A DNA stretch of 64,000 nt from Gilvimarinus algae. Its GTDB lineage: Bacteria > Pseudomonadota > Gammaproteobacteria > Pseudomonadales > Cellvibrionaceae. Of the stretch, positions 1 to 59,345 are shown piece after piece. The number at the start of each line of letters is the position of its first letter. Within the stretch, counting starts at the first letter, position 1. The notes under the pieces are model-generated. The model was given only the letters and a program-made list of their open reading frames with translations, had not been told where the DNA came from and ran no database searches. Location: positions 310,001 to 374,000 of the forward strand of contig NZ_JAULRT010000032.1 of the NCBI RefSeq assembly GCF_030518215.1, written 5' to 3'. Both the position numbers and the translations under genes were made by a program.

Positions 1-5
1 CTTCT

Positions 6-167
6 CTAGTTGTTGCAGTGCCACGCACTAGAGTAAGGATCGCAAGGTGGCGGTGGTGGTGGCGGTGGGTCACACTCAACGCTAATCACGTTGTTGTAGT
101 TGTCTCGGATGACGCGACATCCGCCACCACTGACTGCCTTCATTTCTTCTTTCGTTAGATAACGCAT
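6..167 (-). CDS. Double-glycine precursor peptide, Cys- and Pro-rich (putative bacteriocin-like peptide)
   Basis: This 53-codon gene starts with ATG at 167, 9 bases after the exporter stop codon, with AGGA overlapping that stop as ribosome binding site. Residues 1-15 form a typical class II leader with hydrophobic residues at the spaced positions (Leu4, Met9, Val12) and a Gly14-Gly15 cleavage site. This is the signature processed by C39 peptidases, and such a peptidase is encoded just upstream. The predicted mature part is 38 residues with four cysteines (17, 32, 42, 51). Cys32 and Cys42 bracket an Asp followed by eight consecutive prolines encoded by mixed CCA/CCG/CCT codons, and the tail is short and aromatic. 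I see no known bacteriocin core. Function is inferred from leader and context only: secreted peptide, antimicrobial or signalling. No immunity gene is visible, but the operon may continue past the window edge. Confidence 0.8.
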   Translation of the reverse strand: MRYLTKEEMKAVSGGGCRVIRDNYNNVISVECDPPPPPPPPCDPYSSAWHCNN

Positions 168-176
168 AAGACATTC

Positions 177-2315
177 CTAGTCGTTATGAATGGTATGCCG
201 AGGGTTCCCGGCAAGATGAAATTGCTTCCCTGCAGACCGAACAGTTTCCGGTCTATGTGCTACCAGAACCCGGGTGATACTGAGCTTGCCGATGTTTTGG
301 CTGACTACTGACTCACTATCAGTGTCCAGGTGGCTGGTGGCCTCGTCCATGAACAGAATTTGCGGAGTGCGATAGAGCGCACGAGCTAAAATGACACGTT
401 GCTTTTGTCCTCCGCTGAGATTTGAACCTAGATCACCAATGAGGGTTTCATACCCCATGGTCATTTTCTCGATGTCTCTATGAATACAAGCATTAGTTGC
501 GCATTGCTTAATTCTTTCGCCATCGGGCGATTCTGAGAAGAAGGCAATGTTATCTCGGATGCTGCCGCTGACAAGCTGGTCATCCTGCATGACGCCAGAG
601 ATCTGGCCTCGATACTGAGGTATGGATTTTAGGGGTTTTCCATCGATAAGGATTTCGCCTTCGGTGGGCTCATACAGCCCCATTAGACATTTAATCAGTG
701 TGGATTTTCCGCAGCCGCTCGGGCCGGTGATTGCAAGTGACTCGCCTTTCTCTACCTCAAAGCTAACGTTACGGAAGGCGAAATCCTTCTCTCCCTCAAA
801 CTGGTACCCTAAGTTGACGACTTTAATATTTCCTTCTATGCGATTGTCCTTGTCAAGACTCGCTTCGTTGGACGCTGGTTCCTTGTTTGTAAAAGCAATG
901 TCGGAGAGCCGCTCTAAATGAATGTCAAGAAGCTTGAACTCTATGGACTGAGTTATTAGGTTGTTGAAGGATATAGTGAAGCTGCTCTTGAAACTGACAA
1001 ACGCAAATAGCATCCCGAGACTAAATTGATTATCCCTGACCAGAAGTGCAGCAAGGAAAATTACTGCAATATTTTCGATGCCAAATAGAATGTTGCTGGC
1101 ATTTGTGGTGAAAGTATTCCACTTGGACAGCTGTACCTCTTTGTCGATATGATTGCTAAACTTTGTTGCCCATTGGGCTTGTCGGATACCCTCCTTCTGA
1201 AAGAGTTTTAGTGTTTGTACAGCCCTTAGCGTCTCAAGGAAAAAGCTATTTTCATTGGCAGAGGCGATGATGCTGTCTTGGCTAAGAAGGCGTATCTTCC
1301 GATATAGCGAGATTCGCAGCAGGGTGTACAACGAGACCGCCATAAGGGTTATCATCGTTAATGTGGTGCTGTAGTAAAACAGGATTGCCAGAGTGATTAT
1401 TGTCATGGCGCCATCCAGAATGGCGGTGACAAGGCCTCCGGTGATCATGTCCCGAACGCTTCGTAGGGAGCCAAATCTCGAGACGATGTCGCCAACATGT
1501 CTTCTCGAGAAGAAGCTAAAGGGAAGCCTTATTAGATGAAAGAACAAGTTTGCACCCATTTGTAAGCTAAGTTGCTTCGAAAGGTGCAATATGGCAAAAG
1601 ACCTAAGAAAGCTAATTGCCGCCTGGGTGAGAACGAGCAGTGAAAACCCTATGGCAATTGGCACTAACCAGTCCCAGTACTCGGTGCTTACTACCTGATC
1701 TACTACGAGTTGCAGATAGAGCGGAGATAAAATCGTCACGAAGTGGAGTGCAAAGGTAATTGCAATTATCTGAAAAAGACTTCGCTTCAGGCCAATGACG
1801 TTAGTCCATAGGTCAGATAGCCTTAACTTTTTATTGTAGTTTCCTTTGTTGAAGTCTTCAGTTTTGGTGACTTCTACCACAATTCCCGTGAAATGAAGGT
1901 TGAATTCGCTTAACGGAAGTAAAACCTCTCCTCGAGAGGGGTCCATTACAGTAAATTGGTCGTTTCGCTTTTTAGTAAGAACCACAAAGTGATTGATATC
2001 CCAGTGAAGCAGGGCGGGAAGCTGAATCTGATCAAGTTCTTCTGTTTCCGCCCGAATGGCACGGGCAGATAGACCTAAGGATGCGAAAACATCAATAACA
2101 TCAGAAAGATCCATTCCCTGCATGGATACTGGATATTGTTTCCTCATGGAGTTTAGGTCAATGTCCAGGCCGTGAGCGCTGACTATAGCTGTAATGCAAG
2201 CCAGTCCGCACTCCGCTTGCTCATTTTGTAGGACGACGCGGGACGGCCGATTTGGTGATTCACGAAAGAGCTTAATGATGCCGGAGGTGTCGCTGGAAAT
2301 TGGCTGAGAGTTCAT
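177..2315 (-). CDS. Peptidase-containing ABC exporter (C39 domain, bacteriocin/microcin type)
   Basis: An inner-membrane ABC transporter of 712 residues with the full three-part layout of peptidase-containing exporters. The N-terminal C39 cysteine protease domain has Gln30, Cys36 (in AECGLAC), His109 and Asp125 in the expected order, so it should be active. A six-helix transmembrane region covers about 180-440. The C-terminal nucleotide-binding domain has Walker A GPSGCGKST near 528, signature LSGGQKQR near 632 and Walker B ILFMDEAT near 652. Known members cut the leader of a double-glycine peptide and pump the mature part out of the cytoplasm. The gene overlaps the upstream adaptor gene by 4 bases and is followed after 9 bases by a matching precursor peptide gene, so the three form one operon. 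Local base composition is AT-richer than the housekeeping genes. Confidence 0.93.
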   Translation of the reverse strand: MNSQPISSDTSGIIKLFRESPNRPSRVVLQNEQAECGLACITAIVSAHGLDIDLNSMRKQYPVSMQGMDLSDVIDVFASLGLSARAIRAETEELDQIQLPALLHWDINHFVVLTKKRNDQFTVMDPSRGEVLLPLSEFNLHFTGIVVEVTKTEDFNKGNYNKKLRLSDLWTNVIGLKRSLFQIIAITFALHFVTILSPLYLQLVVDQVVSTEYWDWLVPIAIGFSLLVLTQAAISFLRSFAILHLSKQLSLQMGANLFFHLIRLPFSFFSRRHVGDIVSRFGSLRSVRDMITGGLVTAILDGAMTIITLAILFYYSTTLTMITLMAVSLYTLLRISLYRKIRLLSQDSIIASANENSFFLETLRAVQTLKLFQKEGIRQAQWATKFSNHIDKEVQLSKWNTFTTNASNILFGIENIAVIFLAALLVRDNQFSLGMLFAFVSFKSSFTISFNNLITQSIEFKLLDIHLERLSDIAFTNKEPASNEASLDKDNRIEGNIKVVNLGYQFEGEKDFAFRNVSFEVEKGESLAITGPSGCGKSTLIKCLMGLYEPTEGEILIDGKPLKSIPQYRGQISGVMQDDQLVSGSIRDNIAFFSESPDGERIKQCATNACIHRDIEKMTMGYETLIGDLGSNLSGGQKQRVILARALYRTPQILFMDEATSHLDTDSESVVSQNIGKLSITRVLVAHRPETVRSAGKQFHLAGNPRHTIHND

Positions 2316-2797
2316 TGCCGAAACTCCTGCTTCGTAGAATTCTCTCGCGTCAGTAACTCGTAGAAAGTTCGCTTTTCTTGAACTAGTTTAAGGCCTACTG
2401 TCTTGAGCAGAGTTTCCGGTTTCTCCAATTGAATCTCTAGAATCCATTTTTTGTCATTTATGTCTTGATTGATCAAGCGGCCTTTAAGTGAATTCCCTGT
2501 ACTTGAAGAGCTTGGGTAAAGGTTAATGGTTTCACCGGTTGATACTTTATGGTTGGGCGCCGTCGATAACTGTATTCTAGCCCTGAGCCCTGACTGAGCG
2601 AGTACATTTGCCTGATAATACTGATAGCTTCTCCACTCAACGCTGAAGGCCGCATAAGAAAGAAATGCAAGCCAGGTTATCGATAACATGAAAAATGAGA
2701 AGTATGAAATTTTCGGTGTCGCTATGACGCTGCCATAGAGTTTGTTGTTGGTGGCCGCAATTGCTTGTTCTCTAAAAAGTGAACTTCCTTGGCTCAT
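2312..2797 (-). CDS. Very short HlyD-like periplasmic adaptor
   Basis: A protein of 161 residues with the start seen in CvaA/HlyD-type adaptors of C39 exporters (SLFREQAI), one transmembrane helix at about 30-53 and a beta-rich C-terminal part. The end resembles the last barrel strand and tail of HlyD proteins (LKLVQEKRTFYELL). Family members usually have about 400 residues, with a lipoyl domain and a long coiled-coil hairpin that reaches TolC. Here the sequence passes almost directly from the membrane helix to the barrel-like part, so those middle domains are missing. The reading frame is intact, GAGG lies 9 bases before the ATG, and the end overlaps the exporter start by 4 bases, so this looks like a functional reduced gene and not decay. 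Assignment to HlyD is by motif resemblance and context. Confidence 0.65.
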   Translation of the reverse strand: MSQGSSLFREQAIAATNNKLYGSVIATPKISYFSFFMLSITWLAFLSYAAFSVEWRSYQYYQANVLAQSGLRARIQLSTAPNHKVSTGETINLYPSSSSTGNSLKGRLINQDINDKKWILEIQLEKPETLLKTVGLKLVQEKRTFYELLTRENSTKQEFRQ

Positions 2798-3200
2798 GTA
2801 TAATCGCCTCAGCGTTGCAAGTTATTATTCTTATCTTATTGTTAAAATAACTATAACACTGGACGTTGTATTTAATCACGTTAACTTAGTCACAAAATGT
2901 GATATGTCTATTTTCTTGAGGGGAATAGTTATTTTTTTGTGTCTGAAAAATACGATAAATGAAAGGGGGTAACGTAGGAGGGATTGCGAAAAGAGGAGGT
3001 TTTATGTGTGAAAAATCCGATAAGTGGCACTCAATGAATCCTTCATTTTTAGCCGTCCAATAAGACGGGGGTTACTGGGTTTTTGGGAGCCGCTGTTGAG
3101 GTAAATGCCTAGCTTGCTTACTGCGAGAGTTCAGTAAATGAGTAAAAGAGGGGTGTCACTACCGGAGTGGTGTTATGGGTCGCAGGCTGTCGTACAAGCA
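2798..3200. other. Intergenic region, AT-rich
   Basis: About 400 bases without a convincing gene. The part near 2800-2900 should hold the promoter of the export operon, but I see no clear -35/-10 pair. A 19-codon reading frame on the plus strand at 3004-3063 is preceded by GAGGAGG, a strong ribosome binding site, but has no recognisable product. Two stretches near 2944 and 3009 share an imperfect direct repeat of the form TGAAAAAT(A/C)CGATAA(A/G)TG. Confidence 0.4.
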
Positions 3201-3228
3201 GAACGGGGAGTCTTGACTCTCCCCGTTC
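3201..3228 (-). terminator. Hairpin downstream of the CXXCH lipoprotein gene
   Basis: Ten-base-pair perfect stem (GAACGGGGAG pairing with CTCCCCGTTC) with an 8-base loop, 9 bases past the lipoprotein stop codon. No clear T run follows on the minus strand, so it may be a weak terminator or a 3' end stabiliser. Confidence 0.55.
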
Positions 3229-3237
3229 TACATTCAA

Positions 3238-4575
3238 TTATTTCCCCTGCTGCTCTTGAATGTCATCAAAAATATGACTCAGACCCGTGGTAGCAGTTTT
3301 GCCGGGCGTGTAGCCGTGGCAGACAAAACAGTTAAGTACACCGCTGGTCGAGGTATCAATTTGCCCATTGTTGACACTGAGGCTGCCTTGAAAGGTGGTC
3401 TCCATCACGGGGTTGGCCAGTTGCATGGAGCCGCGCTGGTTGTCGGTGGTGGAGGGCTTGGACGGGTCGCTGACCCAGAGCGCGCCGATATTAAAATAAT
3501 GGCGCCACACGGACATGGTTGAGGGTACGCTGCTCTTGTTCAGCAGACTCTGGATTTGGTTGTTGAGAGACTGGACATCCACAATGTTTTCTTCACCCTT
3601 GTGATCGCCCGGTGCGGTGCCCTCCGGAAATACACGGCAAATTTCAGACGCGGTTCCTGTCAGGCTGCTTGCTTTTGTAGCCTGGTTGTAGCTGCAGCTT
3701 TCCAGGCAAGCCGATGTTGGGCTCTCCAGACAGCTTTGGCAGCTAGCAGATAGGAATGACCAGCCCTCTGCAGGTGCCTGTGCCGGGCTCTGGCAGTTGG
3801 GAGCATTGTTCTTATGCTCGAAGCTGGCCCATACCAGCTCGCGGTGTTCGGGTGTGCCGCGCACCAGGTGAACGCCAATTAAGCCCAAGGTTTCTCCGAT
3901 GGGAGCGCCCTGCTCGGGAATCACATCGGCCTCAATCCAGAAATACTCGTTTTTCAGCGAGTCGTCTATCACCCGCCAGGCGAGCTTTAGCTCGGTGGTG
4001 TCTGCCGGCAAGTCGCCGGTAGCGGTTGCATCGCACAGGCTGCGGCTAAATGAGATGCTGTAGAAAACAACGTTGCTGTTCTGGTCGTAAATGGTGGCAC
4101 CACCTCCGGCCTGGCCGATACGCTCAGGTAGGGTAAAACTGGTGTCTGCGGCCTGGTCCTTAACGGTGCGAACAAAAAACACGGGTTCGCTGGATGGGTT
4201 GGAGCAGGAGTTTCCGTCAATTTCCAGTACGGGGTAATCGGCAACCATTTGAAAGTTGCGCAGTGATGGATCGCTCTGGGACGGCGACATCAGGTAAAAA
4301 AACCACTGCCAGGAAAACTGATAAAACTGACAGAAGTTGGTGCCGCCGCCAGGGATCTCTGTGGGCGGGTTGGGGTCAGTGATCCAGCTCAACTCCGCCT
4401 GGCAGGCCTTGTCGGATGAGGCGCTGCTAACGGCTGTCTTTGCGGTGCTGCTATTAGCGGGTGTGTTGAGTGCGGTGGTTGTTTCAATGGTAGAGGGCGC
4501 GGGTTTGTCATCTTGGGTACAAGCGCCAATCAGGGTTGCGAGTGTCGATATTATCAGTATGCGCGAAAGCGTCAT
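3238..4575 (-). CDS. Lipoprotein with a single c-type heme motif, function unknown
   Basis: A 445-residue protein with a lipoprotein signal peptide: positive start, hydrophobic stretch and lipobox LIGAC with Cys at about 19. A Thr/Ser/Ala-rich tether follows. The body is Trp- and aromatic-rich near 85-100 and carries a cluster of cysteines near 270-300. Close to the C-terminus (about 417-421) lies CFVCH, a CXXCH motif that normally attaches c-type heme covalently in the periplasm. There is no clear cytochrome c fold around it and only one such site. I do not recognise the family. It stands alone between two hairpins with the CGGGGAG stem sequence. An outer-membrane or periplasmic redox lipoprotein is plausible. 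Confidence 0.75.
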   Translation of the reverse strand: MTLSRILIISTLATLIGACTQDDKPAPSTIETTTALNTPANSSTAKTAVSSASSDKACQAELSWITDPNPPTEIPGGGTNFCQFYQFSWQWFFYLMSPSQSDPSLRNFQMVADYPVLEIDGNSCSNPSSEPVFFVRTVKDQAADTSFTLPERIGQAGGGATIYDQNSNVVFYSISFSRSLCDATATGDLPADTTELKLAWRVIDDSLKNEYFWIEADVIPEQGAPIGETLGLIGVHLVRGTPEHRELVWASFEHKNNAPNCQSPAQAPAEGWSFLSASCQSCLESPTSACLESCSYNQATKASSLTGTASEICRVFPEGTAPGDHKGEENIVDVQSLNNQIQSLLNKSSVPSTMSVWRHYFNIGALWVSDPSKPSTTDNQRGSMQLANPVMETTFQGSLSVNNGQIDTSTSGVLNCFVCHGYTPGKTATTGLSHIFDDIQEQQGK

Positions 4576-15521: not shown

Positions 15522-15611
15522 CCGCGCGATAACGGGTGCTAAAATCCGGCGCTGAACACCTCAGGCGTGGGCAGAGCCCGCGCTCTACATCATTATAATT
15601 GGAGTCAATCT

Positions 15612-16745
15612 ATGGCCTGGAATGAACCGGGAGGCGGGGATAAGGATCCCTGGGGTAATCGCAACAACGACGGTCCGCCGGACCTGGATGAGGCCCTGAA
15701 AAAGCTGCAGGAAAAGCTCGGTGGCATTTTTGGTGGCGGCTCGGGTGGTAAGGGCGGCGGCAGTGCCAAGGGCTTTGGCACTTTGCTGATCGGCGCCATC
15801 GTGGTGGCGGGCCTGCTCTACGCCTTTGCCGGTTTTTACCAGGTGGATGAGAAAGAGCGTGCCGTGGTACTGCGCTTTGGTGCCTTCAGTGAAATCAAGC
15901 AGCCGGGCCTTCGCTGGAATGCCCCGCTGATTACCGAAGTGTTTGTGGAAAACGTCACCGAGGAGCGGCAGTACCCGAGCCGCGGCCTGATGCTGACCGA
16001 AGACGAGAGCATCGTCGAGCTACCCATCACCGTGCAATACAATGTAAACGATGTGAAGGCCTATGTGCTCAACGTCCGTGATCCGGAAGTGAGCCTGCGC
16101 CACGCCGCCGATTCCGCCCTGCGCCATGTCGTGGGTTCGACCGAACTCGAGCAAGTGCTCTCGGAAGGCCGTGGCAAAATCGCCGATGAGGTGGAAGTGC
16201 GCTTGCAGCAGTATCTGGACAGCTACGGCACGGGTATCCTGGTACGCGATGTGAACATTCAGGAAGGCCGGCCGCCGGAAGAAGTGCGCGCTGCTTTTGA
16301 CGATGTGATTAAAGCGAAAGAGGACGAAGAGCGCCTGAAAAACGAAGCTCAGGCCTACGCCAATGCGGTGGTCCCGGCGGCTCGCGGTCGCGCCCAGCGT
16401 ATGCTGGAAGAGGCCGAGGCCTATCGCGCCGAAGTCACCAGTCGCGCCGAAGGTGAATCGGAGCGCTTTGTCAATCTGCTGACAGAGTACACCAAGGCGC
16501 CGGAAGTGACCCGCGAGCGTCTGTACATCGAGGCGCTGGAGCAAGTCATGGGCAATGCTTCCAAGGTTTTGGTGGATGTTGAGGGTGGCAACAATATGAT
16601 GTACCTGCCGCTGGATAAATTGATGGAGCAGTCCTCCGGCCAGTCCCGCAGTACCACGCTCAGTCAGGAGCAACTGCGTCAGATCAGTGATTACGTGTCC
16701 CGCCAACTGGGGCGTTCCAATAACACCTACCGGGAGGGCCGCTAA
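15612..16745 (+). CDS. hflK: FtsH protease modulator HflK
   Basis: SPFH/prohibitin-family membrane protein which with HflC forms the cage around the FtsH protease in the inner membrane. The start ATG 15612 gives 377 residues: a Gly-rich cytoplasmic N-terminus (WNEPGGGDKDPWG), one transmembrane helix near 58-78, then the SPFH domain beginning VDEKERAVVLRFGAF and a long alpha-helical region with Ala/Glu-rich heptads. It shares one base with hflC in TAATG, indicating translational coupling. Confidence 0.95.
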   Translation: MAWNEPGGGDKDPWGNRNNDGPPDLDEALKKLQEKLGGIFGGGSGGKGGGSAKGFGTLLIGAIVVAGLLYAFAGFYQVDEKERAVVLRFGAFSEIKQPGLRWNAPLITEVFVENVTEERQYPSRGLMLTEDESIVELPITVQYNVNDVKAYVLNVRDPEVSLRHAADSALRHVVGSTELEQVLSEGRGKIADEVEVRLQQYLDSYGTGILVRDVNIQEGRPPEEVRAAFDDVIKAKEDEERLKNEAQAYANAVVPAARGRAQRMLEEAEAYRAEVTSRAEGESERFVNLLTEYTKAPEVTRERLYIEALEQVMGNASKVLVDVEGGNNMMYLPLDKLMEQSSGQSRSTTLSQEQLRQISDYVSRQLGRSNNTYREGR

Positions 16746-54017: not shown

Positions 54018-56375
54018 ATGATACGAAAACTTGTGCTCGGTATTGGCCTATTGTGGCTCAGCCATACAGTCCAGGCCGTTGAATACTTCGCGCTGGATGA
54101 GGTGCGCCTGACAGAAAGCCCGTTTAAGCAAGCCCAGGAGAAAAACCTGGAGTACGTTATGACCCTGTCGCCGGATCGGCTGCTGGCGCCCTACCTGCGC
54201 GAGGCGGGTCTGACCCCCAGGACGGCCAGCTATGGCAACTGGGAAAATACGGGGCTGGACGGTCACATCGGAGGTCACTATGTCACCTCTCTCAGCCTTG
54301 CCTATGCCGCTACCGGCAGAGCAGATGTTAAAGCGCGGCTCGAGTATGTGCTCAGTGAGCTTGAGCGTGCGCAAAAAGCCAACGGCAATGGCTATTTAGG
54401 CGGTGTGCCTGACAGCGACAAGCTCTGGCAGGAAATCGCCAGAGGTGAGCTGCGGGCTGACTTGTTTGCGCTCAATGGCTACTGGGTGCCCTGGTACAAT
54501 CTGCACAAAATATTCGCAGGTTTGCGCGATGCCTACGTCTATACCGGTAGCGAGCAGGCCAGACGCATGATGCTTGCCTGGGCCGACTGGGCGGCAGCGC
54601 TGATGTCCCATTTGTCCGATGAACAGATTCAGCAAATGCTGACCACCGAGTACGGTGGCATGAATGAAACCTTTGCCGATGTGTATGCGCTGACCGGAGA
54701 TCAGAAATACCTGACTCTGGCTGAACAGTTTTCTCAGCGCAAGTTGCTTGAGCCTTTGGTGAAAGGGCGTGATGAGTTGACGGGTTTGCACGCCAACACC
54801 CAGATACCCAAGGTGGTGGGATTTGAGCGCATCGCGCAGCTCAGTAACCAGGAGGACTGGCACCGCGCCGCCGAGTATTTCTGGCGCACGGTGGTCAATG
54901 AACGCAGCGTGGCGATCGGTGGTAACAGTGTGCGCGAGCACTTTCACGACAAGGCCGACTTCGATCCCATGATTGAGGAAATCGAAGGGCCGGAAACCTG
55001 CAACACCTACAACATGCTCAAGCTCACCAAGTTACTCTATGGGCGTCGTACTGCACCGGAGTACGTCAATTACTACGAGCGCGCGCTTTACAACCACATC
55101 CTCAGCTCGCAAGACCCGCACACCGGCGGGCTGGTGTATTTCACGCCTATGCGTCCGAACCACTACCGGGTGTATTCACAAACCCATCAGGGGATGTGGT
55201 GCTGCGTGGGCTCGGGTATCGAAAACCATTTTAAGTATGGCGAGTTTATTTATGCTCACCAGGGCAATGAGCTCTACGTCAATCTCTATATTCCCTCGAC
55301 ACTTCACTGGCGCGAGCAGGGCGTGCGTCTGAGTCAGACTACCCACTTCCCCGATGAGTCGGGCACCTCGTTTAGCTTTGAGCAAGCTGCCGACATCACC
55401 CTGAAACTGCGCTACCCGCAATGGGCTGCGGGTGAACCCCAGGTTCAGGTCAATGGCAAGGCCATCAAGGTAGAGGTCGACGCCGATGGCTATATTGCGC
55501 TCGACAGACACTGGAAAAAGGGTGATCAGGTGGCCTTGGCCCTGCCGATGCAAACGCATCTGGAAGCCCTGCCCGGTGGTTCGGATTTTTACGCGATTCT
55601 CTACGGGCCCATTGTGCTCTCGGCCGAAACCTCACCCTTTAAAGATGAGGTGCTCAATTACTACGCAGATGCCAGCAGAATGGGGCATATTGCCGATGCT
55701 GAGCGCTGCCCGATTGATCAGGCGCCCATGCTGGTCGCCAGTAGCCCGGATTTTGCCGAACAGATTCAGCGTATTGATGATCATCAGTTACGCTTCAAGG
55801 CGAGCGGTGTGATTCAGCCGGTCGAGTACCAGAATCTGGAGTTGATACCTTTTTTCCGCGTGCATCGCTCGCGCTATATGCTCTACTGGCCCTACAGTAC
55901 GCCCGAGAACATCGGCGCCTTGCGCGAGAATCGCGCCCGCGAAGAAGTCGCTCAACTGGCGTTGGAAGCGGTTACCATCGACAAGGTGGCCCCCGGTGAA
56001 CAGCAACCTGAGTCAGATCATTTTTTCCAAGGCAGTGAGAGCGAGGCAGGTGTTCATCTTGGGCGCCACTGGCGTCATGCCCACGACTGGTTCAGTTATC
56101 AACTCAATGATCCGCAGGCGCAGGCGCGATTTCTGCAAATCACTTACTTTGGCGGGGACGCAGGCAGACACTTTTTTATCGAGCTCAACGGTGATGTTTT
56201 GGCACAAGTCCGTCTGAGCGCCGAGCGGGGGCCGGAGTTCTACAGCGTCGAGTACGTCATACCGCCAGAGATTCTAGCGAAAGCGGATAAAGGCAAGCAC
56301 TTGCTGAAATTTGTGGCCGGAGAAAAATCGATAGCCGGTGGAATTTACGGCGTGCGCCTATTATCTGATCATTAG
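54018..56375 (+). CDS. GH127-family beta-L-arabinofuranosidase, exported
   Basis: A 785-residue protein with signal peptide (cleavage after VQA near 21). The catalytic (alpha/alpha)6 domain shows GNWENTGLDGHIGGHYVTSLSLAYAAT, YWVPWYNLHKIFAGLRDAY, GGMNETFADVYALTG and, near 326-328, ETCNTYNMLKL, with WCCVGSGIENH at 394-404. In the Bifidobacterium enzyme HypBA1 the corresponding Glu and three Cys bind zinc and one Cys is the nucleophile; here Glu326, Cys328, Cys395 and Cys396 are in place. C-terminal beta domains follow. It would remove beta-linked arabinofuranose outside the inner membrane for the adjacent importers. Confidence 0.9.
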   Translation: MIRKLVLGIGLLWLSHTVQAVEYFALDEVRLTESPFKQAQEKNLEYVMTLSPDRLLAPYLREAGLTPRTASYGNWENTGLDGHIGGHYVTSLSLAYAATGRADVKARLEYVLSELERAQKANGNGYLGGVPDSDKLWQEIARGELRADLFALNGYWVPWYNLHKIFAGLRDAYVYTGSEQARRMMLAWADWAAALMSHLSDEQIQQMLTTEYGGMNETFADVYALTGDQKYLTLAEQFSQRKLLEPLVKGRDELTGLHANTQIPKVVGFERIAQLSNQEDWHRAAEYFWRTVVNERSVAIGGNSVREHFHDKADFDPMIEEIEGPETCNTYNMLKLTKLLYGRRTAPEYVNYYERALYNHILSSQDPHTGGLVYFTPMRPNHYRVYSQTHQGMWCCVGSGIENHFKYGEFIYAHQGNELYVNLYIPSTLHWREQGVRLSQTTHFPDESGTSFSFEQAADITLKLRYPQWAAGEPQVQVNGKAIKVEVDADGYIALDRHWKKGDQVALALPMQTHLEALPGGSDFYAILYGPIVLSAETSPFKDEVLNYYADASRMGHIADAERCPIDQAPMLVASSPDFAEQIQRIDDHQLRFKASGVIQPVEYQNLELIPFFRVHRSRYMLYWPYSTPENIGALRENRAREEVAQLALEAVTIDKVAPGEQQPESDHFFQGSESEAGVHLGRHWRHAHDWFSYQLNDPQAQARFLQITYFGGDAGRHFFIELNGDVLAQVRLSAERGPEFYSVEYVIPPEILAKADKGKHLLKFVAGEKSIAGGIYGVRLLSDH

Positions 56376-56425
56376 CACAATGCAAGAAGAATGAGCATTA
56401 TCTTTTGGCTGTGGAAAGCAGTCGC

Positions 56426-57598
56426 TTACAAGCTGGTTTCTGTTTCTACAGCCAACGCTTTCGAAAGGTATTGGTTAAAGTACGTTATGATGCTCTCCGG
56501 TTCTCGAAACAGCTGAATAGACATCGGGTGTATGGCGTTATTAATAGCGTCTATTCGCTCTCTTATCTGGCCGTCGGAACCTATGTCCCGAATCCAAATG
56601 GCTTTCACTTGGTCTGGAAACTCCTTGTATATGGCCTGGTAAACCTCTGGGTCGTGCTCCCCGCTGTCACCCACTAGAATAAAGTCTCTTTTAGGGTAGC
56701 GATTAATCAGCTTGGAAATTTGCTGTGGTTTCGTTTCGATTCCCTTTTTAAAGAGCCCAAAAACAGTTTTATCCCGGAAACGAACACTTTTGAGGGTGAA
56801 GCTGGCCCAGGGGAAGTCCGATTGATTCAGCATGCTCAGTAGTTCGGGGTACAGTTGCCAAGGGCTGGATGACACATAATGGAATTGCGCGCCCTTGCTT
56901 TCCATTTGTTGGTAGGCTCTGCTCATTCCTGCAATGCTTGAAAATGGAAGGAGAAAGGTACTTCGCATCAACTCTTCGGTATTTGTCACCCCTGTGCGTT
57001 TTACGGTGTCATCAATATCACTGATTACGGTAAGGCCTGTGGGAGGGTAGAGTTTCACCTCCCCGGAGAATTCTCGAGTGTCGCTAGAGCTTAAAACTGC
57101 TCGGAAATGAATAGTATGATTGGCGGGGTTAATGTGGCTGATGGCTTCCTCTGGAGTGAGGTTTATGATGTGGTAAAAGTGACCATTAGGCGTGGTTTTA
57201 GGAAGAGTAATGGTGTCGTCTGCCAGCCTGATGACTATTTTCTTACCTCTCTCATTATCTGCTATCAGCAAATTGACTCGCTTTTCAAAAGTCTCCCGCT
57301 GGGTGTCCGATATGTCTATCTGATATTTTGCTGATAAAGCGGCTTCAAACAAGGACGCTCTTACAATGCTACTTTGGGGTTCATATACCCAACCATGAAT
57401 CGGTATTTTCCAGAGATTTTCGGAGTTGTCGAACCATGCGCTGGTGCGGAAAAAAACGATTGTTTCGTCGCTTTTTAGGTCACTGGCTGTCTGCGCTGTG
57501 TTGGTACAGCCTGTCAGCAGAATGAAAAGTATGACAATTGATGCCGTCAGCTGATGCATGTGGAGTGGTTGTTTTTGATCTATGTGGAGTGGTTTCAT
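56426..57598 (-). CDS. App1/DUF2183-type phosphatase lipoprotein
   Basis: A 390-residue protein with an apparent lipoprotein signal (LFILLTGC near 31 from the chosen start). The C-terminal half has ISDIDDTVKRTGVTN, a DxDxT phosphatase motif near 193, followed by FHYVSSSPWQLYPELL, and the DFILVGDSGEHDPEVYQ acidic site near 318. This is the catalytic domain of yeast App1-like Mg2+-dependent phosphatidate phosphatases. The start is unsure: neither ATG 57598 nor ATG 57559 has a good ribosome site, and the codons between them lie in an imperfect 24-base tandem repeat. AT-rich compared with flanking genes, probably acquired. Confidence 0.82.
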   Translation of the reverse strand: MKPLHIDQKQPLHMHQLTASIVILFILLTGCTNTAQTASDLKSDETIVFFRTSAWFDNSENLWKIPIHGWVYEPQSSIVRASLFEAALSAKYQIDISDTQRETFEKRVNLLIADNERGKKIVIRLADDTITLPKTTPNGHFYHIINLTPEEAISHINPANHTIHFRAVLSSSDTREFSGEVKLYPPTGLTVISDIDDTVKRTGVTNTEELMRSTFLLPFSSIAGMSRAYQQMESKGAQFHYVSSSPWQLYPELLSMLNQSDFPWASFTLKSVRFRDKTVFGLFKKGIETKPQQISKLINRYPKRDFILVGDSGEHDPEVYQAIYKEFPDQVKAIWIRDIGSDGQIRERIDAINNAIHPMSIQLFREPESIITYFNQYLSKALAVETETSL

Positions 57599-57677
57599 AC
57601 AAGGAGTTCAGCTTGAGTTCAGTTGCCGAGCGGACAATAATGCTTTTTACGCCATTAAAATAATAGGGGAGCCAATT

Positions 57678-59345
57678 GTGACGCCAGCTTTAGCGAAACG
57701 GCAAGGTAGCATTCATGGGATTCTTTTCGTTTTTATGGTGGCTTGCGTTGTAGCCACCATCAGTGCTTGTCAAACTCAAAAGAAGGAGCCTGTGGTTGTT
57801 TCGGCCATTGTACCTACCAATTCCGATAAGCCAAGCATATTGCAGTTGGTGGATTTGGGAGGCTTGGATATCCAGAACGGAGGTGGTGTGCCGGTACATT
57901 TCCACGATTCTGAATTTTCCCCCGGAGAGTGGGTATTAGTAAGAGGGAAAAATCTGGGCGTTTCCAGCGTCTCCGTCGATGGATTGCGAGTGCCAGTAAA
58001 GCAATACTTCGGTAATTACCCACTGTTCAAAATTCCGGTAGGGCTTTCCCCTGTCAACGAGCACACGCTGGTGATTGAGAACGAATACGGCGAATCACGA
58101 AGTACCTTCACCACGAAGCATTACCTGTTTGCCAATGATCTAGATGATTCCAAAACGCATATTCTCCAGGTTGACCGAAACTCGGAAGGGTTTATTCGTG
58201 AAGAATGGTTAGAGCTTGAATCACCTGCAGACCGGCCGCTTTTTACGATAGTCTCCAACGATAGTCGCTTCTTATATCAAATGGATGTCGGTAAGCGCTC
58301 GGGGGAATCATTAATGGACGAGGCAGATACCTATCCGGTTATCGTTCGTACATTCCATCTGGCTGCACCGCAGCGGCCGGAGAAGGTCGCGGAATCTGAA
58401 CTAGCGGTAGGGTCGGTACCGATTGATTCGCACTTGAGCGGAGATAACACATTGCTACTGTTAGGCAAGCAAAGCTTTACGTTGGTGGACGCCGCAGATC
58501 CCCTGAGTTTGAGTACACTTAGCCATACCGCTCTACCGTTTAATGAGGATGGAAGCACAACTTACGTTGACGCGATTTTTCTGGATAACGATAAGAAGCT
58601 GGCTTTACTTGAGACCTATAGTAATCGAGTTGTGCTTTTTGATGTGTCAGATAGAGCTTCGCCCAAACTGATAGACGAGGTCCAGCTCTTGCCAAGTAAA
58701 ACCGTTGCGCTTTCGATAGATTTGGAGCCGGTTCCGGATAATCCCACTGCTTTTTGGGTGCTAGAAGGGCCAAACTATCGAGTGGCAGGTTCGAAGCTGG
58801 CTGACATGTATAAGCGTATTGTTCTGGATCGCGATATCTCTGAGTCAAGATCACTTCTCAGTCAGCTCCAGAGAGTTGCAATCGCCGACAATAAACTGGT
58901 TCTGGATAGGAGGGTTTCTCTTCCTGAAGGCTTTGCCTCGTATTTTTCAGTGTTTGGCGAAGACGGAAGACTTTACATTACACAAACAAAAACTGATTTC
59001 TTTAATGTGGACATGGAAGAAGGTAGCCCGAAAACCATCCTAAAACGTGTTGGTGATCTCGTGTGGGAGAATATGTCGCTTGGGCGGGTGGTAGCGTTTG
59101 ACTTAGAAACTGAAGCGGTGGAAACCATCTCGCGCGGTGTCGGCATTTACTATCACATAGTCGATGTGCCGGGGATCGGCCAGGTGTTTACTTTGCTCAA
59201 ATTTGGCCCCTCGTTCAGTTTTCCTTATCTAACCCCCAATTGGGGTGTTGGAGTCAAAACCACTGGCACCTATGCAAAGCGAAAAATGAATAGGCGCGCG
59301 GCTTTTCCACCCTACTCCATTGGCTTTATCGCCTATCAGTATTAA
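57678..59345 (+). CDS. Large lipoprotein, possible IPT/TIG and beta-propeller domains
   Basis: A 555-residue protein from GTG 57678, chosen because AGGGGAG lies 6 bases upstream and the signal peptide with lipobox ISAC then begins at the right distance. After the tether comes an IPT/TIG-like beta sandwich (SPGEWVLVRGKNLGVSSVSVDG near 85-110), then a long repeat-poor beta region containing VDAADPLSLSTLS and VLFDVSDRASPKLIDEVQL, phrases typical of LVIVD-type propeller blades. No catalytic motif is seen. Likely surface or periplasmic. Divergent from the App1-like gene with which it shares AT-rich composition, so the two may have arrived together. Confidence 0.72.
   Translation: MTPALAKRQGSIHGILFVFMVACVVATISACQTQKKEPVVVSAIVPTNSDKPSILQLVDLGGLDIQNGGGVPVHFHDSEFSPGEWVLVRGKNLGVSSVSVDGLRVPVKQYFGNYPLFKIPVGLSPVNEHTLVIENEYGESRSTFTTKHYLFANDLDDSKTHILQVDRNSEGFIREEWLELESPADRPLFTIVSNDSRFLYQMDVGKRSGESLMDEADTYPVIVRTFHLAAPQRPEKVAESELAVGSVPIDSHLSGDNTLLLLGKQSFTLVDAADPLSLSTLSHTALPFNEDGSTTYVDAIFLDNDKKLALLETYSNRVVLFDVSDRASPKLIDEVQLLPSKTVALSIDLEPVPDNPTAFWVLEGPNYRVAGSKLADMYKRIVLDRDISESRSLLSQLQRVAIADNKLVLDRRVSLPEGFASYFSVFGEDGRLYITQTKTDFFNVDMEEGSPKTILKRVGDLVWENMSLGRVVAFDLETEAVETISRGVGIYYHIVDVPGIGQVFTLLKFGPSFSFPYLTPNWGVGVKTTGTYAKRKMNRRAAFPPYSIGFIAYQY

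What the first reader, a model, noticed from the sequence alone, without database searches (positions are those of the whole stretch)
6..2797. Compact peptide-export operon: mini adaptor, C39 exporter and an unusual precursor
Three tightly spaced minus-strand genes (4-base overlap, then a 9-base gap) encode a shortened HlyD-like protein, a catalytically complete C39 ABC exporter and a double-glycine precursor whose core resembles no bacteriocin I know. The peptide gene is short and easily missed by gene callers, and it sits after the exporter. AT-rich composition suggests acquisition. Known from families: C39 exporters process GG leaders. Inferred: that this exporter handles this peptide and that the product is bioactive.
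Basis: partly seen in the sequence, partly recalled or inferred. Interest (0 to 1): 0.85.

Follow-up and report, generated by a model that had tools for sequence, protein, structure and literature searches.

The report
Exported-peptide cassette with linked sugar-transfer enzyme
A small block of acquired genes makes a short cysteine- and proline-rich peptide, its own export pump with a shortened helper protein, and two enzymes that probably decorate the peptide; a diverged copy of the whole block in another genus shows that the parts travel together.

Summary
In detail: on the minus strand lie a 161-aa HlyD-like protein (2797-2312), a C39 peptidase-ABC exporter (2315-177) and a 53-aa double-glycine precursor (167-6). 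The window edge cuts the operon; beyond position 1 follow a 13-bp hairpin, a GT1/MGT-like glycosyltransferase and a SAM methyltransferase. The AT-rich island is absent from a congener in which its two flanking genes are neighbours.

The best exporter match among 144 family genomes, in another genus, carries the same cassette: short HlyD-like protein (184 aa), exporter (51%), homologous four-Cys precursor, hairpin, GT (49%), MT (52%). So the mini adaptor is a shared part, although only its membrane anchor is clearly HlyD.

Best reading: a GG-leader peptide, probably glycosylated and methylated by the linked enzymes, then cleaved and exported by this exporter. Action on the peptide, outer-membrane crossing and antibacterial activity are untested. 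The kind is known (C39-exported peptides; glycocin-like in logic); the GT1-type enzyme, the core, the shortened adaptor and the gene set matched no family or paper in the searches made.

The parts
6..167 (-). 53-aa double-glycine precursor: 15-aa leader MRYLTKEEMKAVSGG, 38-aa core with four Cys and eight Pro in a row between Cys2 and Cys3
   Evidence: frame and AGGA-type ribosome site; profile of other loci's leaders finds it first in the genome; homologue in genome G776: 12 of 15 leader residues identical, core alignment score reached by 2 of 20,000 shuffles
177..2315 (-). C39 peptidase-containing ABC exporter, 712 aa, C36/H109/D125
   Evidence: Pfam/NCBIfam; PDB relatives include bacteriocin ABC transporters, HlyB and ComA; catalytic residues; relatives
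2312..2797 (-). 161-aa short HlyD-like protein: HlyD membrane anchor, then about 100 residues without significant match; too short for the usual lipoyl and coiled-coil parts
   Evidence: anchor: BLAST, hhalign 94.7%, profile 1.7e-6; tail: no significant match, low-confidence model with six strands; 184-aa counterpart in the sister cassette, BLAST 4e-6 over the anchor
1..3201 (.). window part of an acquired island of about 7.2 kb that continues past position 1 to phnA/yjdM; outside the window, same strand: 13-bp hairpin, GT (L002:16586-17941), MT (L002:15820-16647)
   Evidence: congener G006 has the two flanking genes adjacent and no island; GC; off-window genes; hairpin

Best explanation
A horizontally acquired cassette for a modified, exported peptide. 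The 53-aa precursor is made with a 15-aa double-glycine leader. The linked GT1/MGT-like glycosyltransferase adds a sugar to the core (candidate sites: the Ser/Thr three residues before Cys2, or Ser/Tyr near the C-terminus) and the linked methyltransferase methylates the sugar or the peptide. The C39 domain of the exporter cuts after GG and the ABC part moves the 38-residue core out of the cytoplasm, where four cysteines can form two disulfides around the proline-rich linker. The short HlyD-like protein works with the exporter at the inner membrane, without the long hairpin by which ordinary adaptors reach the outer-membrane channel. Shown by sequence: the genes, the exporter's catalytic residues, the leader, the inheritance of short adaptor + exporter + peptide + hairpin + GT + MT as a unit in two genera, and acquisition in the window's genome. 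Inferred: that GT and MT act on the peptide, the disulfides, the role of the short adaptor, the route over the outer membrane, and a role in competition.
For: No other exporter with the catalytic Cys and no better leader match in the genome; the two genes are 9 bases apart. The best non-own exporter match among 144 family genomes (37 with a match at E<=1e-100, own included), G776, has the same order and strand, with exporter 51%, GT 49% and MT 52% identical and a homologous precursor; core homology 2 of 20,000 shuffles. A short HlyD-like frame precedes the exporter in both (161 and 184 aa), whereas 63 of 89 relatives' loci have a long (at least 260 aa) anchored adaptor there. A 13-bp hairpin of unrelated sequence separates precursor and GT in both (z -3.4 and -3.8). 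The GT keeps the HHGG-x-G motif and matches EryCIII-like_C, Glyco_transf_28 and UDPGT over Pfam's cut-offs. Among 52 family exporter loci 7 (G776 included) hold a GT1 homologue of at least 60 bits, against 0 of 37 loci of other families; in L151, L153 and L158 it is in one run with exporter and GG peptide. A 51%-identical exporter sits beside a RimK-like ATP-grasp gene resembling graspetide maturases (below their NCBIfam cut-offs) and a TTLAxGEE-repeat precursor, so this exporter branch probably serves modified peptides.
Against: No direct evidence that GT or MT touches the peptide; they could act on a surface glycan, a lipid or a small molecule, or give self-protection. No immunity gene was recognised. 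Only two members of the exact cassette are known. The tails of the two short adaptors are not significantly alike, so their shared function is open. Of the 7 loci with GT1, one (L164) has it on the strand opposite the exporter and one (L152) is cut by the contig end. The background rate of GT1 genes was not measured, so 7 of 52 is a rough sign of linkage. In G776 the cassette (42.5% GC) does not stand out from its neighbours (40.7-48.0%), so acquisition is shown for the window's genome only.
Confidence: 0.6

Rival explanations
1. Ordinary class II microcin: an unmodified disulfide-bonded GG peptide that kills competitors; GT and MT are passengers or alter the producer's surface as immunity.
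For: GG precursor plus C39 exporter match the class II export unit of PMC9746304 (passages). GTs of this broad kind also act on lipids and small molecules (hit names). No immunity gene otherwise.
Against: GT and MT are kept with the peptide in the same order in two genera at 49-52% identity. GT1 homologues recur beside other exporters of the family.
Confidence: 0.25
2. Signal or envelope component: a secreted, glycosylated, proline-rich disulfide peptide for signalling or the cell surface, not a weapon.
For: No immunity gene recognised; related loci have a poly-Ser or a Thr/Pro core with transferase genes nearby, one a sulfotransferase.
Against: No receptor, kinase or regulator recognised among the island frames or in the G776 cassette; patchy distribution and very variable cores in relatives suit conflict systems.
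Confidence: 0.2
3. Decaying island: the shortened adaptor shows that export is lost and the rest drifts.
For: 161 aa where 63 of 89 loci have an adaptor of at least 260 aa; split adaptors do occur, e.g. L045 (176 + 229 aa frames) and L160 (281 + 149); duplicated fragments inside the island.
Against: The sister cassette has a short adaptor too, at 27% identity, with an intact exporter; exporter, GT and MT frames are intact and keep their motifs.
Confidence: 0.06

Closest known systems
Class II microcins with CvaA/CvaB-type export
   Same: GG leader, C39 exporter with the same catalytic spacing
   Different: no full-length membrane fusion protein, no recognised immunity gene, core without family match, linked GT and MT
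Siderophore (class IIb) microcins such as E492
   Same: GG peptide whose modification genes include a glycosyltransferase (mceC; passage of PMC7680869)
   Different: no Ser-rich C-terminus and no mceIJ-like pair in the island frames read or the G776 cassette; such a pair is seen beside related exporters
Glycocins
   Same: GG-leader Cys-containing peptide, C39 exporter and glycosyltransferase genes together (abstract starts; passages)
   Different: known glycocin GTs are SunS/GT2-like (recalled); here an EryCIII-like/GT28 (GT1) enzyme; Gram-negative host (inferred); methyltransferase added
Graspetide-like clusters of the same exporter branch (L040, L145, L146)
   Same: exporter 49-51% identical beside a GG-leader precursor
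   Different: TTLAxGEE repeats, with an ATP-grasp gene checked in L040 only
BesA, the hairpin-less adaptor of Borrelia
   Same: an adaptor without alpha-hairpin can belong to a pump operon (PMC3807786, passages)
   Different: [quoted passage not shown] the proteins here are shorter and only their anchor is clearly HlyD

Membership tests
C39 peptidase-containing ABC exporters | C39 domain with Cys/His/Asp plus ABC membrane and ATPase domains | tested here: met
Double-glycine leader peptides | MxxLxxxExxxVxGG-type leader next to a C39 exporter | tested here: met
   E=0.0056, next 2.2; strict pattern once in 64 kb
Class II microcins | full-length membrane fusion protein in the export unit | tested here: not met
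   161 aa, 184 aa in the sister; anchor only
Class II microcins | cognate immunity protein | tested here: inconclusive
   none recognised among frames; small unknown ones cannot be excluded
Class II microcins | antibacterial activity | not testable with these tools
   needs bench work
Siderophore (class IIb) microcins | Ser-rich C-terminus carrying the siderophore (Ser attachment: PMC7680869 passage) | tested here: not met
   core ends WHCNN; sister ends WKCN
Glycocins | SunS-like GT2 glycosyltransferase (recalled) | tested here: not met
   EryCIII-like_C, Glyco_transf_28, UDPGT; TIGR01426 MGT 72 of 260 bits
Glycocins | sugar on Ser/Thr/Cys of the mature peptide | not testable with these tools
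   needs mass spectrometry
NHLP/proteusin export systems | TIGR03796 exporter at cut-off | tested here: not met
   487.6 of 853.3 bits
Graspetides | ATP-grasp ligase in the operon | tested here: not met
   none among the island proteins scanned
HlyD-type membrane fusion proteins | N-terminal membrane anchor | tested here: met
HlyD-type membrane fusion proteins | lipoyl, hairpin and barrel domains | tested here: inconclusive
   window tail: no significant match; sister tail: C-terminal HlyD profile i-E 0.003, mixed pairwise results; models of low confidence

The most novel reading that the evidence does not exclude
The two cassettes are first-seen members of a Gram-negative family of sugar-decorated, C39-exported peptides made with GT1-type glycosyltransferases and exported through a purpose-shortened adaptor. 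In related loci the cores are low-complexity (poly-Pro here, poly-Ser or Thr/Pro elsewhere), tailoring genes are exchanged between loci, and stand-alone C39 domains without the catalytic Cys may serve as leader-binding helpers of the tailoring enzymes.
Probability: 0.35. Interest if true: 0.8.

Novelty: new variant of a known kind. Interest (0 to 1): 0.64.

Why it matters
If GT and MT act on the peptide, this is a route to sugar-bearing double-glycine peptides with an enzyme type other than that of the known glycocins (GT2, recalled), in a Gram-negative host, with a searchable signature: short adaptor, C39 exporter, four-Cys/Pro peptide, hairpin, GT1, methyltransferase. The shortened adaptor, present in both cassettes, makes a mechanistic question testable: how a C39-exported peptide passes the outer membrane when the adaptor is too short for the usual hairpin.

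Tried and rejected
No relative found: peptide in plasmids; GT and the two-peptide alignment in viral contigs; the 161-aa protein in plasmids. Family libraries gave the peptide sub-threshold leader hits, and a poly-Pro match to Androgen_recep (0.042) that I take as an artefact. GT in plasmids (window GT, 20 of 82 records listed) and phages (G776 GT, 2 records): 23.6-27.1% identity. GT at E<=1e-30 in 390 order genomes: own and one 30% match; in 398 'phylum' genomes: own only. Those draws did not include G776; I found it through the exporter.

A looser profile search on both strands found the 184-aa frame, so the mini adaptor is now counted as a shared part and the decay rival was lowered from 0.12 to 0.06. 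I had also called the G776 cassette AT-rich beside its flanks; measured, it is not.

HlyD tail as C-terminal barrel: my eye alignment suggests it. MAFFT placed the tail elsewhere, hhalign aligned it to the lipoyl half, shuffles were not convincing (best 13 of 300 for a barrel, 26 of 300 for a lipoyl part), and the lipoyl-region profile scored better than the C-terminal one. Structure comparison gave no Foldseek match at E<=0.001 and mostly unrelated barrels, with two membrane fusion proteins tied at Z 6.7. For the sister tail the C-terminal profile is better (0.003 against 0.087), pairwise scores mixed; its model is uninformative (pLDDT 34.6). In 390 order genomes the 161-aa query matched three others: two anchors of long adaptors and a frame with eight stops.

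Promoter and terminator scan of 2700-3240: none. Rfam over 6.5 kb: none.

Literature: searches; listings were capped in several (12 of 354, 12 of 46, 15 of 56). No listed title or abstract start describes this cassette. I read passages of PMC9746304, PMC12457901, PMC3807786 and PMC7680869 only.

Full report
What is there. The middle protein is a C39 peptidase-containing ABC exporter with C36, H109 and D125, the spacing of C32, H105 and D121 of CvaB (passage of PMC9746304), and intact Walker, signature and H-loop motifs. None of the 25 NCBIfam matches shown (of 190) reaches its cut-off; the best is the NHLP exporter model, 487.6 of 853.3 bits. The small frame has the leader MRYLTKEEMKAVSGG and a 38-residue core with four cysteines and eight prolines in a row.

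Is the peptide real? A strict leader pattern followed by a frame of 10-120 residues occurs once in the six frames of the window. A profile of 14 leaders from other loci finds it at E=0.0056 in the 4.2-Mb genome; the next match is 2.2. The genome has one other C39-like domain at E<=0.01; it lacks the catalytic cysteine and lies in a run with a 472-aa and a 586-aa frame that I read as adaptor and outer-membrane component of an adhesin-type system (frames; the reading is recalled, not tested).

Past the window edge. The window is contig C50:310001-374000. The contig continues with a perfect 13-bp hairpin after the peptide gene (the folded 86-nt stretch has -33.6 kcal/mol, z -3.4), a glycosyltransferase (EryCIII-like_C, Glyco_transf_28, UDPGT over Pfam's cut-offs) and a methyltransferase (Methyltransf_11, with a CxxC...CxxC pattern before it), overlapping on the same strand. 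PDB matches of the GT include sterol 3-beta-glucosyltransferase, YjiC and GtfA/B/D.

Acquisition. The island genes have 42-53% GC, the window from 3300 on 57.3%. In congener G006 phnA/yjdM and the 445-aa gene that flank the island are about 95 bases apart and the island is missing; in the window's genome about 7.2 kb stands between them. Inside it a 522-bp stretch with the 3' ends of phnA and of the methyltransferase is duplicated at 90%, and 82 bp of the 445-aa gene's end at 79%: at least two steps of insertion. Of eight genomes of the genus, six have no exporter match at E<=1e-100; no other of the eight has the peptide (one match at 0.04 to a 1728-aa frame).

The sister cassette. In the family 37 of 144 genomes, own included, have an exporter match at E<=1e-100. 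The best after the own one, G776 of another genus, carries in the same order and strand a short HlyD-like frame (184 aa), exporter (51%), a GG peptide, GT (49%) and MT (52%). Its 58-aa precursor has 12 of 15 leader residues identical and in the core four cysteines, prolines between Cys2 and Cys3, a Ser/Thr three residues before Cys2, D-x-Y and a W-x-C-N end (Cys1 pairs in the alignment, not in that). The cores score 46 against a shuffle mean of 6.0 (sd 8.3), reached by 2 of 20,000. A 13-bp hairpin of different sequence stands at the same place (z -3.8). This is the main finding: short adaptor, exporter, peptide, hairpin, GT and MT form one inherited unit. In G776 the GC content does not set the cassette apart.

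The short adaptor. The window protein's anchor matches HlyD (profile 1.7e-6) and the sister's anchor (BLAST 4e-6, residues 6-43). The remaining parts of the two are not significantly alike. The sister's C-terminus matches the HlyD C-terminal profile weakly (i-E 0.003); the window's does not. Both models show an anchor helix and no long hairpin, at low confidence. Of 89 relatives' loci 63 have an anchored frame of at least 260 aa directly before the exporter; several of the rest are cut by contig ends. Besides the sister, L178 (178 aa, anchor E 0.044) and L171, a second exporter locus of G776 (180 aa, with LFRKEAV), have short anchored frames there; the last two are suggestive only. Whether the short form does without an outer-membrane partner or uses another protein is open. 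Borrelia BesA shows that a hairpin-less adaptor can belong to a pump operon (PMC3807786, passages).

A wider pattern. Of 52 family exporter loci 22 have a leader match within 300 bp downstream, against 2 of 37 of other families; 7 of 52 have a GT1 homologue of at least 60 bits, against 0 of 37. In L151, L153 and L158 it stands in one run with exporter and GG peptide; L153 and L158 add stand-alone C39 domains without the catalytic Cys and His. A recurrent pair of frames (about 550-600 and 136-154 aa) lies in L151, L158, L163, L169, L171 and L178; one small member matches HlyC (0.002) and one large member SelO (0.0011), both below cut-off. They recall MceI/MceJ, which attach the siderophore to microcin E492 (PMC7680869, passages; the likeness is my reading). 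In L040 a 51%-identical exporter goes with a RimK-like ATP-grasp gene and a TTLAxGEE-repeat precursor. The exporter branch thus appears to serve modified peptides of several sorts.

Mechanism and confidence. That the peptide is cut and exported by this exporter: about 0.9. That GT and MT act on the peptide: about 0.65. That the product inhibits other bacteria: about 0.4. It fails the glycocin GT type, the microcin adaptor test and the class IIb C-terminus, and is filed as a new variant of C39-exported peptides. Interest was raised by 0.02 when the short adaptor proved shared.

Noticed in passing
L153:10639-11046 and L158:5828-6259: Stand-alone C39 domains beside GG-peptide exporters with the catalytic Cys and His replaced; possibly leader-binding helpers.
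   Followed up: partly
L158:571-2731; L151:11432-13553; L169:1755-3921; L163:11288-13502; L178:4905-7031; L171 (about 554 + 147 aa): Recurrent gene pair, about 550-600 and 136-154 aa, near these exporters; weak sub-threshold HlyC (L178) and SelO (L151) matches suggest a MceI/MceJ-like attachment system.
   Followed up: partly
L171:9772-10314 and L178:7031-7567: Further short anchored frames (180 and 178 aa) directly before related exporters; weak matches to the HlyD anchor.
   Followed up: partly
L163:13634-13837: GG-leader peptide with a Thr/Pro mucin-like core beside a sulfotransferase gene.
   Followed up: no
L158:7969-8211: GG-leader peptide with a run of serines near its end, followed by GT1, C39-like and GT4-like genes on one strand.
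   Followed up: no
L040:5613-6871; L145; L146: GG-leader precursors with TTLAxGEE repeats, in L040 beside an ATP-grasp gene: graspetide-like clusters with close relatives of this exporter.
   Followed up: partly
L185:9575-9766: Cys-rich GG peptide beginning GGQQC like the G776 precursor, directly before a remote exporter (31%).
   Followed up: no
L002:13822-14340 and 15601-16119; L002:14465-15301: Duplicated phnA/methyltransferase fragments and a second methyltransferase inside the island, pointing to stepwise insertion.
   Followed up: partly
L039:3661-4455; L042:6236-7036; L045:6321-7160: CPBP (Rce1-like) membrane proteins near related exporters, possible immunity or processing genes; none recognised in the window's island.
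   Followed up: no
window 56001-59000: Second stretch of low GC (0.46-0.49) in the window.
   Followed up: no
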